Below are positions 1 to 5,148 of a DNA stretch of 5,148 nucleotides, piece after piece. The DNA lies in assembly GCA_014860725.1 (NCBI GenBank), contig JACZJD010000682.1:1-5148 (forward strand), in the 5' to 3' direction. The DNA is from Aquamicrobium sp. Lineage in GTDB: Bacteria; Pseudomonadota; Alphaproteobacteria; Rhizobiales; Rhizobiaceae. The translations under genes and the position numbers were made by a program. Below the pieces are notes generated by a model. The model was not told where the DNA came from and made no database searches. It worked only from the letters and a program-made list of their open reading frames with translations. Numbering within the stretch: position 1 is the stretch's first letter; every line of letters starts with the position of its first letter.

Positions 1-171
1 CCGCAGATCACCGCGGAGCAGAAGGCGAGCGAGACCGCCGCGCTGCGTGCCCGCCGGCAGCAGCTGGCCGGGGAGGGGGGCGGACAGGCCGTCGGGACGA
101 GCGCGGAGGACCTGCGCCGGCTCGCCCAGAGCCATGGCGAGGAGGCGCTGAAGCAGATCGAAAGCGAGTGA
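1..171 (+). CDS. C-terminal fragment of an unrecognised protein
   Basis: Frame 1 is open from the window edge to a TGA at 169-171, giving 56 residues that begin PQITAEQKASET and end EALKQIESE. Its start lies outside the window. About 52 of the 56 codons end in G or C, the same bias as the certain genes downstream, which supports real coding. The peptide is hydrophilic and rich in Ala, Glu, Gln and Arg, with a glycine-rich break (GEGGGQ) near its middle. The flanks look helical, possibly coiled-coil. There is no membrane segment and no catalytic motif. I do not recognise the family and assign no function. It ends 109 bp before the aminotransferase gene on the same strand, so it is probably a separate transcription unit or the end of an upstream operon. 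Confidence 0.6.
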   Translation, partial: PQITAEQKASETAALRARRQQLAGEGGGQAVGTSAEDLRRLAQSHGEEALKQIESE

Positions 172-280: not shown

Positions 281-1498
281 ATGGAAGAGTTTCACAAGGT
301 CCGCCGGCTTCCGCCCTACGTGTTCGAGCAGGTCAACAGGCTGAAGGCCGCTGCCCGGGCCGGCGGCGCCGACATCGTCGACCTTGGCATGGGCAATCCC
401 GACCTGCCGACCCCGAAGGCCATCGTCGACAAGCTGGTCGAGGTGGTGCGCGACCCGCGCACGCATCGCTATTCCGCGTCGCGCGGCATTCCGGGCCTGC
501 GCCGCGCCCAGGCCAGCTACTACGCCCGCCGCTTCGGCGTGAAGCTCGATCCCGAGCGGCAGGTCGTCGCCACGCTCGGCTCCAAGGAGGGCTTCGCCAA
601 CATGGCGCAGGCCATCACGGCGCCGGGCGACGTGGTCATGTGCCCGAACCCGACCTATCCGATCCACGCCTTCGGCTTCATCATGTCGGGCGGCGTCATC
701 CGCTCGATGCAGGTGGAGCCGGACGACAACTTCATCCCGGCGCTGGAGCGCGGCGTGCGCCATTCGACGCCCAAGCCGCTGGCGCTGATCCTCAACTATC
801 CGTCCAACCCGACGGCGCAGGTCGCCTCGCTCGACTTCTACAAGGACGTCGTCGCCTTCGCGAAGAAGCACGAGATCATCATCCTGTCCGATCTCGCCTA
901 TGCCGAGATTTATTTCGACGGCACGCCGCCGCCCTCGGTGCTCGAGGTGCCGGGCGCGATCGACGTCACGGTCGAGTTCACCTCGATGTCGAAGACCTTC
1001 TCCATGCCCGGCTGGCGCATGGGCTTCGCGGTCGGCAACGAGCGGCTGATCTCGGCGCTGACGCGGGTGAAGTCCTATCTCGACTACGGCGCGTTCACGC
1101 CGATCCAGGTGGCGGCGACGGCCGCGCTCAACGGCGACGGCTCCGACGTCGCCGAGGTGCGCGAAATCTACCATCGCCGCCGCGACGTGATGGTCGATTC
1201 CTTCGCGCGCGCCGGCTGGGAGATTCCGGCCCCGGCGGCGACCATGTTCGCCTGGGCGCCGATCCCACCGGCGTTCCGCCATCTCGGCTCGCTGGAGTTC
1301 TCCAAGCTCCTGGTCGAGAAGGCGGACGTGGCGGTGGCGCCCGGCATCGGCTTCGGCGAGCACGGCGACGAACATGTCCGCCTGGCGCTGGTCGAGAACG
1401 AGCACCGCATCCGTCAGGCGGCGCGCAACATCAAGCGCTTCCTGGGCACGACCGGCGAGGGGACGGACAACGTGGTTCCGCTCGCCGCGCGGCGCTGA
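281..1498 (+). CDS. alaC: AlaC-type PLP aminotransferase (class I/II)
   Basis: A 405-residue fold-type I, PLP-dependent aminotransferase. It closely resembles E. coli AlaC (412 aa), which makes alanine from pyruvate with glutamate as amino donor. Relatives are often labelled LL-diaminopimelate aminotransferase, so the substrate is not settled. Visible family features: RRLPPYVF at the N-terminus, MGNPDLPTP, SRGIPGLRRA, GSKEGFAN, and YPSNPTAQ with Asn176, the usual contact to the PLP ring hydroxyl. Asp204 in SDLAYAEI would pair with the pyridine nitrogen, next to Tyr207. Lys238 in SMSKTFSMPGWRMGF is the Schiff-base lysine and Arg246 the phosphate contact. Arg367 in EHVRLALVEN is the expected substrate-carboxylate arginine. 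The protein is full length, cytosolic, with no signal peptide. The ATG at 281 is chosen because MEEFHKVRRLPPYVF matches the family N-terminus; the ribosome site is weak (GGA at 271-273). hom follows after 53 bp. All key residues are present. Confidence 0.93.
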   Translation: MEEFHKVRRLPPYVFEQVNRLKAAARAGGADIVDLGMGNPDLPTPKAIVDKLVEVVRDPRTHRYSASRGIPGLRRAQASYYARRFGVKLDPERQVVATLGSKEGFANMAQAITAPGDVVMCPNPTYPIHAFGFIMSGGVIRSMQVEPDDNFIPALERGVRHSTPKPLALILNYPSNPTAQVASLDFYKDVVAFAKKHEIIILSDLAYAEIYFDGTPPPSVLEVPGAIDVTVEFTSMSKTFSMPGWRMGFAVGNERLISALTRVKSYLDYGAFTPIQVAATAALNGDGSDVAEVREIYHRRRDVMVDSFARAGWEIPAPAATMFAWAPIPPAFRHLGSLEFSKLLVEKADVAVAPGIGFGEHGDEHVRLALVENEHRIRQAARNIKRFLGTTGEGTDNVVPLAARR

Positions 1499-1551
1499 AG
1501 ACGACCGGCCGACTTCCACAAGGCCAGACTGAAAGAAGGAATGCCGGGGGC

Positions 1552-2865
1552 ATGAGCGAAGCTTTGCGTGTGGGAATTGCCGGCCTCGGCACGGTCGGGG
1601 CGTCGGTGGTGCGGGTGCTGGCCGACAAGGCGGCGGAGCTGACGCGCCAGTGCGGCCGGCCGATCGTCGTGGCGGCGGTTTCGGCGCGCGACAGGGCGCG
1701 CGACCGCGGCGCGGACCTGTCGGGCGCCGCCTGGTTCGACGACCCGGTGGAACTGGCGAAAAGCAACGGCATCGACGTCTTCGTCGAGCTGATCGGCGGC
1801 GAGGAGGGGGCCGCGCGCGCCTGCGTCGAGGCCGCGCTGCAGGCCGGCCGGCACGTGGTGACGGCCAACAAGGCGCTTCTGGCGCGGCACGGCCTCGAGA
1901 TGGCGGCCATCGCCGAGAAGAACGGCGTGCTCCTGAACTACGAGGCGGCGGTGGCGGGCGGCATCCCGGTCATCAAGACCATGCGCGAGGCGCTGGCCGG
2001 CAACACGGTTTCCCGCGTCTTCGGCATCTTGAACGGCACCTGCAACTACATCCTGACGCGGATGGAGGCCGAGGGGCTGTCGTTCGAGGAATGCCTGAAG
2101 GACGCGCAGCGTCTCGGCTATGCCGAGGCCGACCCCACCTTCGACATCGAGGGCCACGACACGGCGCACAAGCTCGCCATCCTGACGAGCCTCGCCTTCG
2201 GCAGCCGCATCGCGCCGGACGACATCTATCTCGAAGGCATCTCCAACATCACGCAGGCCGACATCCGCGCCGCGAGCGAGCTCGGCTACCGCATCAAGCT
2301 GCTCGGCGTCGCCCAGCGCACCGAGGAAGGCATCGAGCAGCGCGTGCATCCGACCATGGTGCCGACCGCCTCGGTGATCGCGCAGGTCAACGGCGTCACC
2401 AACGCGGTGGCCATCGAGACCGACATCGTTGGCGAGCTGCTTCTGTCCGGCCCCGGCGCGGGCGGCAATGCGACGGCCTCGGCCGTGGTCGGCGACATCG
2501 CCGACATCGCCAAGAGCCGGCCGGGCTTCCAGCACGGGCCGGTCTTCGGCCGTCCGGCGACCGAGCTTTCGCGCTATGTGCGCGCGCCGATGCGCAGCCA
2601 TGCCGGCGGCTACTTCATCCGGCTGACCGTCCACGACCGCGTCGGCGTGTTCGCCGCGGTGGCGCGGCGCATGGCCGAGAACGGCATCTCGCTGGAATCG
2701 ATCGTCCAGCACGCCAACGGCGCCAACCCGGACACGCAGAAGACGGTCATCCTCGTCAGCCACGAGACGACCGAGGCGGCGGTGCGCAAGGCCGTGGCCG
2801 GCATCACCGAGGACGGCCACCTGACCACCAAGCCGCAGGTCATCCGCATCGAGCGGGCGGCCTGA
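1552..2865 (+). CDS. hom: Homoserine dehydrogenase with C-terminal ACT domain
   Basis: A 437-residue homoserine dehydrogenase (EC 1.1.1.3), reducing L-aspartate 4-semialdehyde to L-homoserine with NAD(P)H, at the branch to threonine and methionine. Residues 6-16 form the Rossmann start with the GxGxxG pattern G11-L-G13-T-V-G16. ANK at 105-107 carries the conserved Lys107. The catalytic region is YAEADPTFDIEGHDTAHK: Glu192, Asp203 and Lys207 have the same 11- and 4-residue spacings as Glu208, Asp219 and Lys223 of the yeast enzyme. An ACT domain starts near residue 354 (YFIRLTVHDRVGVFAAVA) and runs almost to the C-terminus; in this family it usually mediates threonine feedback inhibition. It is the monofunctional form without an aspartokinase domain, of normal length. 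The ATG at 1552 has AAGGA at 1536-1540, a slightly long 11-nt spacing. The frame stays open upstream to about 220, but that stretch is a shadow of alaC. Called thrA in some rhizobial annotations. Confidence 0.97.
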   Translation: MSEALRVGIAGLGTVGASVVRVLADKAAELTRQCGRPIVVAAVSARDRARDRGADLSGAAWFDDPVELAKSNGIDVFVELIGGEEGAARACVEAALQAGRHVVTANKALLARHGLEMAAIAEKNGVLLNYEAAVAGGIPVIKTMREALAGNTVSRVFGILNGTCNYILTRMEAEGLSFEECLKDAQRLGYAEADPTFDIEGHDTAHKLAILTSLAFGSRIAPDDIYLEGISNITQADIRAASELGYRIKLLGVAQRTEEGIEQRVHPTMVPTASVIAQVNGVTNAVAIETDIVGELLLSGPGAGGNATASAVVGDIADIAKSRPGFQHGPVFGRPATELSRYVRAPMRSHAGGYFIRLTVHDRVGVFAAVARRMAENGISLESIVQHANGANPDTQKTVILVSHETTEAAVRKAVAGITEDGHLTTKPQVIRIERAA

Positions 2866-2874
2866 CGTCGCATT

Positions 2875-2906
2875 CCCGTCATTCAATCGATTGATCTTGG
2901 GACGGG
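2875..2906 (+). repeat. Nested inverted repeat after hom
   Basis: CCCGTC at 2875-2880 is the reverse complement of GACGGG at 2901-2906. Between them lies a perfect 12-bp palindrome, TCAATCGATTGA, at 2883-2894, which is unusually A+T-rich for this window. It begins 9 bp after the hom stop codon. As RNA it could fold as an outer 6-bp stem with an inner 4-bp stem, perhaps helping 3'-end formation of hom. As DNA the palindrome could be a dimer-binding operator for glpX. There is no following T tract, so a classical intrinsic terminator is unlikely. A second small stem, GGGCG at 2904-2908 with CGCCC at 2915-2919, would compete with the outer arm. Confidence 0.35.
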
Positions 2907-2932
2907 CGCGGAATCGCCCTTGCAGGGGTGCG

Positions 2933-2952
2933 GCCTCTTTGACAAAAGGGGC
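2933..2952 (+). other. Stem-loop in the glpX leader
   Basis: GCCTCTTT at 2933-2940 pairs with AAAGGGGC at 2945-2952 as an 8-bp stem (one G-U pair) closed by a four-base GACA loop. It overlaps both a perfect TTGACA hexamer at 2939-2944 and the palindrome GGGCGCGCCC at 2949-2958, so the hairpin and that palindrome cannot form together. No convincing -10 box lies 16-19 bp after the TTGACA (the bases there are CGGGCAAC-like), so I do not call a promoter. Nor is there a T tract to make it an intrinsic terminator. Confidence 0.3.
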
Positions 2953-2997
2953 GCGCCCGTGCGGGCAACCCTCTGATCTCATGCAAGGTTCGACATT

Positions 2998-3975
2998 ATG
3001 TCCAAAACCGCTCCGTCCGGTCTCGACCGTATCCTGACCCTCGAACTCGTGCGCGTCACCGAGCGCGCGGCGGTCGCTGCCGCGAGGCTGCGCGGGCGCG
3101 GCGACGAGAAGGCGGCGGACCAGGCGGCCGTCGACGCCATGCGCGCGGAGCTGAACCGCCTGCCGATCAAGGGCACGGTCGTCATCGGCGAGGGCGAGCG
3201 CGACGAGGCGCCGATGCTCTATATCGGCGAGGAGGTCGGCACGGGCGAGGGGCCGGAAGTGGATATCGCGCTCGACCCGCTCGAGGGCACGACGATCTGC
3301 GCCAAGAACCTGCCGAACTCGCTCGCCGTCATCGCCATCGCCGAGAAGGGCAGCCTGCTCTACGCACCCGACGTCTACATGGACAAGATCGCGGTCGGCC
3401 CCGGCTATCCGGCCGGTATCGTCGACATCGACGCGCCGGCGCAGGAGAACATCCAGAACCTCGCCAAGGCCAAGGGCGTGCCGGTCTCCGAGATCACCGC
3501 CTGCATCCTCGACCGGCCGCGCCATGCGCGCCTCATCGAGGCCGTGCGCTCGACGGGCGCTGCGATCCGCCTGATCGGCGACGGCGACGTGGCGGGCGTC
3601 ATCCACACCACCGACCCGGCCGAGACCGGCATCGACATCTACATGGGCACCGGCGGCGCGCCGGAGGGCGTGCTCGCGGCCGCAGCCCTTCGCTGCATCG
3701 GCGGCCAGATGCAGGGCCGCCTCCAGCTCAACAGCGAGGAGAAGATCGCCCGCGCCGCCAAGATGGGCATCTCCGACCCGAACAAGGTCTACACGATGGA
3801 GGAGATGGCGCGGGGCGACGTCCTGTTCGCGGCGACCGGCGTGACGGACGGCAACATGCTGTCGGGCGTCAAGTTCGGGCGCGACATGATCCAGACCCAC
3901 ACCATCGTCATGCGCTCGTCCTCGCGCACCGTGCGCGAGATCAAGGCCCGGCATCAGGACCTCGACAAGTTCTGA
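2998..3975 (+). CDS. glpX: Class II fructose-1,6-bisphosphatase GlpX
   Basis: A 325-residue class II fructose-1,6-bisphosphatase (EC 3.1.3.11), a metal-dependent, Li+-sensitive-fold phosphatase converting fructose 1,6-bisphosphate to fructose 6-phosphate in gluconeogenesis. Its cytosolic role is essential for growth on organic acids when no class I enzyme is present. Metal and active-site positions match E. coli GlpX with a constant offset of 8: Asp41 in RGDEKAAD, Glu65 in VIGEGERDEAP, and Asp93, Glu96 and Thr98 in DPLEGT. Further landmarks are PRH at 174-176, GDGDVAG at 194-200, and Glu223 in GGAPEGV. The protein is slightly shorter than the 336-residue E. coli enzyme, mainly through a shorter segment before AKMGI. 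The start at ATG 2998 has CAAGG at 2984-2988, spaced 9 nt. It lies 132 bp after hom and 79 bp before recJ. Some relatives in autotrophs also act on sedoheptulose bisphosphate; nothing here suggests that specifically. Confidence 0.96.
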   Translation: MSKTAPSGLDRILTLELVRVTERAAVAAARLRGRGDEKAADQAAVDAMRAELNRLPIKGTVVIGEGERDEAPMLYIGEEVGTGEGPEVDIALDPLEGTTICAKNLPNSLAVIAIAEKGSLLYAPDVYMDKIAVGPGYPAGIVDIDAPAQENIQNLAKAKGVPVSEITACILDRPRHARLIEAVRSTGAAIRLIGDGDVAGVIHTTDPAETGIDIYMGTGGAPEGVLAAAALRCIGGQMQGRLQLNSEEKIARAAKMGISDPNKVYTMEEMARGDVLFAATGVTDGNMLSGVKFGRDMIQTHTIVMRSSSRTVREIKARHQDLDKF

Positions 3976-4039
3976 GGCCGGGGCCTGAAAACGCCGTCGG
4001 AGCGCATTGCGGCCTTGCTTTTGCCCGGCTTGCCGGTTT
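3975..4039 (+). terminator. Weak hairpins between glpX and recJ
   Basis: AGGC at 3975-3978 can pair with GCCT at 3983-3986, directly at the glpX stop codon and followed by GAAAA. A second hairpin, CCGG at 4025-4028 with CCGG at 4033-4036 (loop CTTG), is followed by TTT at 4037-4039. Both stems are only 4-5 bp. They may attenuate but are unlikely to terminate strongly. With the 79-bp spacing and the same strand, partial read-through from glpX into recJ is plausible. I see no clear separate recJ promoter. Confidence 0.15.
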
Positions 4040-4054
4040 GAGCGTGAGGCGGTG

Positions 4055-5148
4055 ATGAACGACAGGCGATTCTTTCTCGACGTGAAGCGGTCCGCGGCCG
4101 GGCTTGCCTGGGCGCACCGGCTCGACGCGCGCGGCGAGAACGTCGCGCTCGCCATCGCGCAGAACCACGGCATTCCCGACATCGTCGCGCGCGTGCTGGC
4201 CGGCCGCGGCGTCGGGCAGGACGAGGCGCCGCGCTTCCTCGATCCGACCATCCGCGATCTCCTGCCCGATCCGCGCTCGCTGACCGACATGGACCGCGCC
4301 GCCGGCCGCATCGCCGAGGCGGTGATCCGGCGGGAGAAGGTGGCGATCTTCGGCGACTACGACGTCGACGGCGCGGCCTCGTCGGCGCTGATGAAGCGCT
4401 TTCTCGGCCACTATGGCGTCGAGGCGGAAATCTACATTCCCGACCGGGTGTTCGAGGGCTACGGTCCCAACCCGGAGGCGATGCGCGAGCTGGTCGGGCG
4501 CGGGGCACGGCTGATCGTCACCGTCGATTGCGGCACCAACTCGCCCGCCGCCATCGAGGCCGCGAACGCGGCCGGCGCGCAGGTGGTGGTGCTCGACCAT
4601 CACCAGATCGGCGGCGCGCTGCCGGAGGCGGTCGCCGTGGTCAATCCCAGCCGCGACGACGATCTTTCCGGGCAGGGGCACCTTTGTGCCGCGGGCGTGG
4701 TGTTCCTCGCGCTGGTGCGCACGGCGAGCATCCTGCGCGAGCGGGGTGCCGCCGGCTCGCCGCCCGACCTTCTCGGCTGGCTCGACCTCGTGGCGCTGGC
4801 CACGGTCTGCGACGTGGTGCCGCTCGTCGGCGTCAACCGCGCCTTCGTCGCCAAGGGGCTCCAGGCGATGCGCCGGATGGGCAATGCCGGGCTCGCGGCG
4901 CTCGCCCGCGTCGCGCGCATCGGCGAGCCGCTGTCGACCTTCCATCTCGGCTTCATCCTCGGGCCGCGCATCAATGCCGGCGGGCGCATCGGCGATGCCG
5001 CGCTCGGCAGCAGGCTGCTTTCCACCGACGATCCGGTGGAGGCGCAAAAGATCGCCGAGACGCTGGAGCGGCTGAATGCCGAGCGGCAGGCGATGGAGCG
5101 GCCCGACCCCGAGCCGGTGCCGTTTGGATTGAACGAGACCGCGAAGGC
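4055..5148 (+). CDS. recJ: Single-stranded-DNA exonuclease RecJ, N-terminal part; end disrupted
   Basis: A 5'-to-3' single-strand-specific exonuclease of the DHH phosphoesterase superfamily, acting in RecF-pathway recombination, mismatch and base-excision repair. Metal-binding motifs are all visible: GDYDVDG at 100-106 (Asp101, Asp103, Asp105), VDCGT with Asp158, the DHH signature Asp181-His182-His183, and Asp244 and Asp253 in DLVALATVCDVVPL. GPRINAGGR at 303-311 is the conserved linker before the DHHA1 domain. The start at ATG 4055 (MNDRRFFLDVKRSA) fits rhizobial RecJ proteins, with GAGG at 4046-4049 five bases upstream. The whole protein should be near 600 residues. Here RecJ-like sequence ends at about Met347-Glu348. 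The next 16 codons (RPDPEPVPFGLNETAK) do not look like RecJ; they are the reverse complement of a later part of the gene (see the feature at 5089-5148). The reading frame has no stop before the window edge. Confidence 0.93.
   Translation, partial: MNDRRFFLDVKRSAAGLAWAHRLDARGENVALAIAQNHGIPDIVARVLAGRGVGQDEAPRFLDPTIRDLLPDPRSLTDMDRAAGRIAEAVIRREKVAIFGDYDVDGAASSALMKRFLGHYGVEAEIYIPDRVFEGYGPNPEAMRELVGRGARLIVTVDCGTNSPAAIEAANAAGAQVVVLDHHQIGGALPEAVAVVNPSRDDDLSGQGHLCAAGVVFLALVRTASILRERGAAGSPPDLLGWLDLVALATVCDVVPLVGVNRAFVAKGLQAMRRMGNAGLAALARVARIGEPLSTFHLGFILGPRINAGGRIGDAALGSRLLSTDDPVEAQKIAETLERLNAERQAMERPDPEPVPFGLNETAK
5089..5148 (-). other. Inverted fragment of the recJ DHHA1 coding region
   Basis: Read from 5148 back to 5089, the minus strand is open for 20 codons and translates to AFAVSFNPNGTG followed by SGSGRSIA. 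The GSGRSI motif marks the start of the RecJ DHHA1 region (E. coli RecJ has KGSGRSIQG), and a preceding PNGTG-like turn is typical of rhizobial RecJ. This segment should lie on the plus strand, some 60-70 codons after the LNAERQAME sequence that precedes it here. The junction falls within about 5090-5103. There GGCGATGGAGC can be read either as the plus-strand codons for QAME or as the reverse complement of the codons for RSIA. The inversion is an inference from motif recognition without an alignment. Confidence 0.72.

What the first reader, a model, noticed from the sequence alone, without database searches (positions are those of the whole stretch)
5086..5148. recJ runs into an inverted copy of its own downstream sequence
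RecJ reads correctly to LNAERQAME (about residue 348), after which the plus strand no longer encodes RecJ. The minus strand of the last 60 bases instead encodes a peptide with GSGSGRSI, the beginning of the RecJ DHHA1 region that belongs about 200 bp further along on the plus strand. The join sits at a short sequence (GGCGATGGAGC, about 5090-5100) shared in opposite orientations by both sites. A fold-back chimera, as made by multiple-displacement amplification or by assembly at a contig end, would give exactly this. So would a true inversion of a ~200-bp segment between short inverted repeats, which would break recJ and could be a switch. The position at the very edge of the window favours the artefact.
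Basis: partly seen in the sequence, partly recalled or inferred. Interest (0 to 1): 0.7.

Follow-up and report, generated by a model that had tools for sequence, protein, structure and literature searches.

The report
Fold-back chimera at contig end
The last 49 bases of this assembled DNA piece are a backwards copy of a stretch of the recJ repair gene that belongs a little further on; it is best explained as a sequencing or assembly artefact at the end of the contig, not as a gene switch.

Summary
RecJ reads normally on the + strand from 4055 to about 5099 (residues 1-348 plus the first base of codon 349). From there to 5148 the sequence is the reverse complement of a later part of the same gene. 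The minus-strand peptide AFAVSFNPNGTGSGSGRSI is identical (19 of 19) to residues 399-417 of three full-length RecJ proteins 99% identical to the query. In the closest DNA found (L081, 87% over recJ), the window is collinear up to 5099 and then matches inverted. The join carries up to 11 bases of inverted microhomology (GGCGATGGAGC, 5089-5099).

The window is the whole contig: its own homoserine dehydrogenase is listed on a contig of 5148 bases. So the join lies 49 bases from a real contig end. An inverted join with a skipped segment and microhomology is the published signature of fold-back chimeras from MDA or library preparation.

A true inversion cannot be excluded without reads, but little supports it. 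No recombinase was recognised in the 5.1 kb, none of the relatives examined is inverted, and the repeat is not conserved. Verdict: artefact, low interest; trim recJ at about 5099.

The parts
4055..5098 (+). recJ, genuine 5' part (residues 1-348 of about 593)
   Evidence: TIGR00644 recJ 343.4 bits over 41-349 (below its full-length cut-off of 396.9; the gene is truncated) and Pfam DHH; 99% identity over 96% of the query to P0001-P0003
5089..5099 (.). junction microhomology GGCGATGGAGC: fits both RecJ codons 345-349 on + and codons 415-418 on - ; exact length depends on unseen third-codon bases, at most 11
   Evidence: sequence read, relatives' residues, L081 alignment
5100..5148 (-). reverse-complemented recJ segment (DHHA1 region, residues 399 to about 415), the chimeric tail
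   Evidence: 19 of 19 identity to P0001-P0003; inverted blastn match to L081 2689-2744
5148..5148 (.). physical end of the source contig (contig length 5148)
   Evidence: P0128, the window's own homoserine dehydrogenase, is listed with longest contig 5148

Best explanation
This is a fold-back (inverted) chimera at a contig end. A single-stranded 3' end finishing in ...GGCGATGGAGC inside recJ annealed to the complementary GCTCCATCGCC about 200 bases further along, on a strand of the same or a sister molecule. It was then extended, during whole-genome amplification or library preparation, so that the sequence continues on the opposite strand. The assembler followed the chimeric k-mers until they merged, in reverse, with the true recJ sequence, and stopped there. 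The native recJ of this organism is presumably intact. Shown: the inverted join, its place, the microhomology (at most 11 bases) and the contig end. Inferred: the chemistry that made it, why the assembler stopped, and that the native locus is normal.
For: Inverted join shown by protein and DNA. The window is the whole contig, so the join is 49 bases from a real end. The tail agrees with the expected recJ reverse strand for at most 60 bases (5089-5148) and then the contig stops, the order of an assembler k-mer; this is suggestive only. Lasken and Stockwell (PMC1855051, abstract and passages seen) found 406 of 475 MDA chimeras inverted, the majority with an intervening deletion, with complementarity of up to 21 bases and a preference for nearby segments. 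PMC10908179 (abstract and passages) reports from sonicated libraries reads in which the stretch between inverted repeats is reverse-complemented. Perfect 11-base inverted repeats with 30-400 base loops occur at about 2.2 per 10 kb in 78 relative loci and 4.6 per 10 kb in a first-order Markov model of the window, so the substrate is commonplace. In 120 of 120 listed RecJ proteins, in 78 of 78 relative loci at protein level and in 41 of 41 loci with a DNA hit of the tail the segment is in native orientation.
Against: No reads, coverage or library information could be seen, so the chemistry (MDA or other) is not identified. For the contig to pass straight through the join, the true continuation must have been rare or pruned in that assembly, which is not demonstrated. 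The 120 proteins are the best-scoring of 7999, which favours full-length RecJ, so truncated or inverted forms would rank lower. 49 of 90 loci had no DNA hit of the 60-nt tail at E 0.01.
Confidence: 0.95

Rival explanations
1. A true inversion of about 198 bases between 11-base inverted repeats inside recJ, present in the cells, possibly reversible (an intragenic switch that disrupts the DHHA1 domain).
For: The visible 49 bases after the join are equally what such an inversion would give. The expected segment length (198) is a multiple of three. Modelled in a script, the same inversion leaves no stop in the inverted stretch in 57 of 77 relatives and in L081, the closest DNA.
Against: The contig ends 49 bases past the join, which an inversion gives no reason for. 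No recombinase or invertase was recognised in the window; its genes are an unidentified 56-aa C-terminal fragment, an aminotransferase, homoserine dehydrogenase, GlpX and RecJ. The inverted repeat is not conserved: 4-9 bases between the two sites in 78 relatives. In 20 of 77 relatives the modelled inversion meets one or two stops, including 10 of the 12 top-ranked rows printed. Full-length RecJ at 99% identity exists as three other database proteins.
Confidence: 0.03
2. A real palindromic or inverted-duplication rearrangement of the chromosome in a subpopulation (fold-back joined genome), not an in-vitro product.
For: Same junction structure as found.
Against: Needs a rare event at enough depth to be assembled. 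No relative examined shows it, and in-vitro chimeras with the same structure are well documented.
Confidence: 0.01
3. The + strand tail RPDPEPVPFGLNETAK is a genuine divergent C-terminus of a short RecJ-like protein.
For: The + frame stays open to the contig end.
Against: No match in the 120 listed RecJ proteins. The opposite strand is 19 of 19 identical to a conserved RecJ stretch and has an inverted DNA match.
Confidence: 0.005

Closest known systems
MDA fold-back chimeras (Lasken and Stockwell 2007, PMC1855051; abstract and passages seen)
   Same: Inverted second segment, intervening deletion, short complementarity at the join, nearby partner
   Different: Whether this sample was MDA-amplified is unknown
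Inverted-repeat chimeric reads from sonicated libraries (PMC10908179; abstract and passages seen)
   Same: Sequence after the inverted repeat is the reverse complement of the stretch between the repeats
   Different: Described there in human capture libraries; here seen in an assembled bacterial contig
Intragenic invertible DNA (invertons; recalled, not read here: one search found no paper with the term 'intragenic invertons' in the held library and the one paper looked up by DOI was not held)
   Same: Would give the same first 49 bases after the join
   Different: No second orientation, recombinase or conserved repeats shown
Bacterial RecJ (TIGR00644)
   Same: Residues 1-348 are ordinary RecJ
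   Different: The C-terminal DHHA1 and OB parts are missing from the contig, apart from the inverted fragment

Membership tests
Fold-back amplification/library chimera | Second segment inverted relative to native orientation | tested here: met
   19 of 19 aa on minus strand; inverted blastn match to L081
Fold-back amplification/library chimera | Short complementarity at the join | tested here: met
   up to 11 bases, 5089-5099; exact length limited by unseen wobble bases of the native second site
Fold-back amplification/library chimera | Intervening segment skipped, partner nearby | tested here: met
   the tail follows residue 348 and comes from residues 399-418; 150 bases lie between codon 348 and codon 399 in 77 of 78 relatives, 147 in one
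Fold-back amplification/library chimera | Absent from independent reads or libraries of the same sample | not testable with these tools
   no reads held; no whole genome held for the window
Invertible DNA switch (inverton) | Segment seen in both orientations in the population | not testable with these tools
   no reads; relatives examined show only the native orientation
Invertible DNA switch (inverton) | Flanking inverted repeats conserved as recombination sites | tested here: not met
   4-9 base inverted match between the two sites in 78 relatives, never 11; L081 differs at both sites
Invertible DNA switch (inverton) | Site-specific recombinase nearby | tested here: not met
   none recognised by Pfam or NCBIfam among the window's genes; only 5.1 kb seen, could act in trans
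RecJ exonuclease (TIGR00644) | Full-length score above cut-off with DHH, DHHA1 and OB domains | tested here: not met
   343.4 bits against cut-off 396.9 and DHH only, because the contig truncates the gene; relative P0001 has all three domains and 536.6 bits

The most novel reading that the evidence does not exclude
A subpopulation of this Aquamicrobium-like bacterium carries a real 198-base intragenic inversion in recJ between 11-base inverted repeats. It would replace part of the DHHA1 domain, perhaps without a stop (as modelled in the closest DNA, L081), and so switch RecJ activity off and on.
Probability: 0.02. Interest if true: 0.6.

Novelty: not a real feature. Interest (0 to 1): 0.06.

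Why it matters
It matters only as quality control: the contig's final 49 bases should be trimmed, and the 364-aa RecJ prediction with tail RPDPEPVPFGLNETAK should not enter databases as a variant. It is a clean example of how an inverted chimera at a contig end can look like an intragenic inversion, which is relevant to surveys of invertible DNA in metagenomes.

Tried and rejected
The homoserine dehydrogenase was first used one base out of frame (window:1551-2864): protein 5 and the HSD column are void as protein results (the last still shows where the gene lies). One search repeated the search in frame. A search for recJ and the join in plasmid records gave no match (megablast of 4055-5148). 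Rfam on the window gave no match at gathering scores. Single-strand DNA folding of 5000-5148 gave z = -1.78, with 11 of 200 shuffles folding as well, not informative.

A fold-back at the 5' end was looked for: the longest inverted match of the first 60 bases to the next 840 was 9 bases. The 56-aa fragment at the 5' end has a tblastn hit at E 0.002 or better in 19 of the 24 relatives printed (32-45% identity), and in 18 of these 19 the hit ends within about 125 bases upstream of the aminotransferase; in L007 it lies about 1.4 kb upstream. L002, L003 and L024 had only insignificant hits, L018 and L022 none. So the 5' end looks normal.

The first count of inverted repeats in relatives (229 per kb) was spoiled by runs of N; one search replaces it. 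Neither call found a perfect 11-base pair inside the window's first 5088 bases; the partner of 5089-5099 would lie beyond the contig. The k-mer argument (at most 60 bases shared before the contig stops) is kept only as a hint, since the third base of codon 418 in this organism is unseen.

Literature searches. Searches gave nothing used (listings only). PMC13265396 (abstract and passages) says that MDA palindromic reads disturb long-read assemblies, in tardigrade mitogenomes.

Full report
What was claimed. It proposed a fold-back chimera or a small inversion.

Is it there? Yes. The window carries, on the + strand, the end of an unidentified gene (1-171), a class I/II aminotransferase best matching LL-diaminopimelate aminotransferase (281-1498), homoserine dehydrogenase (1552-2865), class II fructose-bisphosphatase GlpX (2998-3975) and recJ (from 4055). 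RecJ is 99% identical over 96% of the query to three full-length 593-aa proteins, P0001-P0003. The agreement runs to residue 348. From residue 349 those proteins read QAMLAEARAE, while the window reads RPDPEPVPFGLNETAK. This tail matches nothing in the 120 listed RecJ proteins: at best 5 of 16 residues in 119 of them and 6 of 16 in one. The minus strand of 5092-5148 gives AFAVSFNPNGTGSGSGRSI, identical 19 of 19 to residues 399-417 of P0001, P0002 and P0003, and 11-18 of 19 in the other 117. Among 3000 shuffles of the tail the best match to P0001 was 10 of 19.

DNA check. A search of 394 genomes of the family with the first 1,044 bases of recJ found matches in 370. Blastn of the whole window against six of the twelve fetched loci (L081-L086) gives for L081 a collinear match 4057-5099 and a separate inverted match of 5093-5148 to L081 2689-2744 at 82%. 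L084, L085 and L086 show the same pair of matches, collinear up to 5099 and then inverted. L082 showed only the collinear match (to 5103), and L083 the collinear match (to 5097) plus a weak hit of the 60-nt tail (E 0.003). L081 reads through the region as an intact RecJ, and a protein search with P0001 found RecJ without internal stops in 3 of 3 genomes G001-G003. Across 90 loci (92 fetched, two Brucella loci left out), 41 have a DNA hit of the 60-nt tail at E 0.01, and in 41 of 41 the reverse complement of the tail lies on the same strand as recJ, 100-300 bases from the end of the recJ match; 49 have no hit, presumably because so short a query is too divergent. At protein level, 78 of 78 loci examined encode the peptide in native orientation, 150 bases after codon 348 in 77 and 147 in one.

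Geometry. On the native gene, codons 399-418 would lie at about 5249-5308. So 5148 corresponds to 5249, and 5099 to 5298. The join carries GGCGATGGAGC (5089-5099), which fits codons 345-349 in + and codons 415-418 in -. Since third-codon bases of the native second site are unseen, 11 is the upper bound of the microhomology. For the 49 bases after the join, a fold-back and an inversion of the 198-base segment predict the same letters; they part only beyond the contig end.

Where the window ends. The window's own homoserine dehydrogenase is listed as P0128 with a longest contig of 5148 bases and no outside source. So the window is a complete contig and the join is 49 bases from its true end. Near-identical homoserine dehydrogenases occur on contigs of up to 126,210 bases (P0129), so closely related populations have been assembled elsewhere; recJ on those contigs was not seen.

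Best explanation. An inverted join with short microhomology and a nearby partner is the described signature of in-vitro chimeras. Lasken and Stockwell report 406 of 475 MDA chimeras inverted, 337 of these with partners under 10 kb, and complementarity at the join of up to 21 bases (PMC1855051, abstract and passages). Sonicated libraries give chimeric reads in which the stretch between inverted repeats is reverse-complemented (PMC10908179, abstract and passages). Suitable repeats are common: perfect 11-base inverted pairs with loops of 30-400 bases occur at 2.2 per 10 kb in 78 relative loci and 4.6 per 10 kb in Markov sequences with the window's composition. The tail shares at most 60 bases with native recJ before the contig stops, as expected if an assembler stopped where the chimeric k-mers merged with the real, reversed ones; this is a hint, not a proof.

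The rival. A real inversion would need a reason for the contig to end 49 bases later and a way to recombine 11-base repeats. No recombinase was recognised in the window, and the repeat is not conserved (4-9 bases between these sites in 78 relatives). Full-length RecJ proteins at 99% identity are known. In favour of it, the segment is a multiple of three long, and the modelled inversion is free of stops in 57 of 77 relatives and in L081. Against it, 20 of 77 meet one or two stops, including 10 of the 12 top-ranked rows printed. High G+C makes open frames common, so this says little either way. Reads would settle it; none are held.

Verdict. The thing itself is almost certainly an artefact of amplification, library preparation or assembly. 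Low interest; the recJ end should be trimmed at about 5099.

Noticed in passing
window 1-171: C-terminal 56-aa fragment of a gene just upstream of the aminotransferase; no Pfam or NCBIfam match, but weak conservation (32-45% identity) in 19 of 24 relatives printed, in 18 of them directly upstream of the aminotransferase.
   Followed up: partly
window 281-5098: Gene order aminotransferase - homoserine dehydrogenase - glpX - recJ: glpX was found upstream of recJ in 22 of the 24 relatives printed; in L002 and L012 no significant glpX hit lay in the fetched stretch.
   Followed up: partly
window 1650-2894: A second frame of the homoserine dehydrogenase gene, one base off, is open for 414 codons and, used by mistake as a query, even found 7 database proteins: a high-G+C overlap effect that can mislead annotation.
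   Followed up: no
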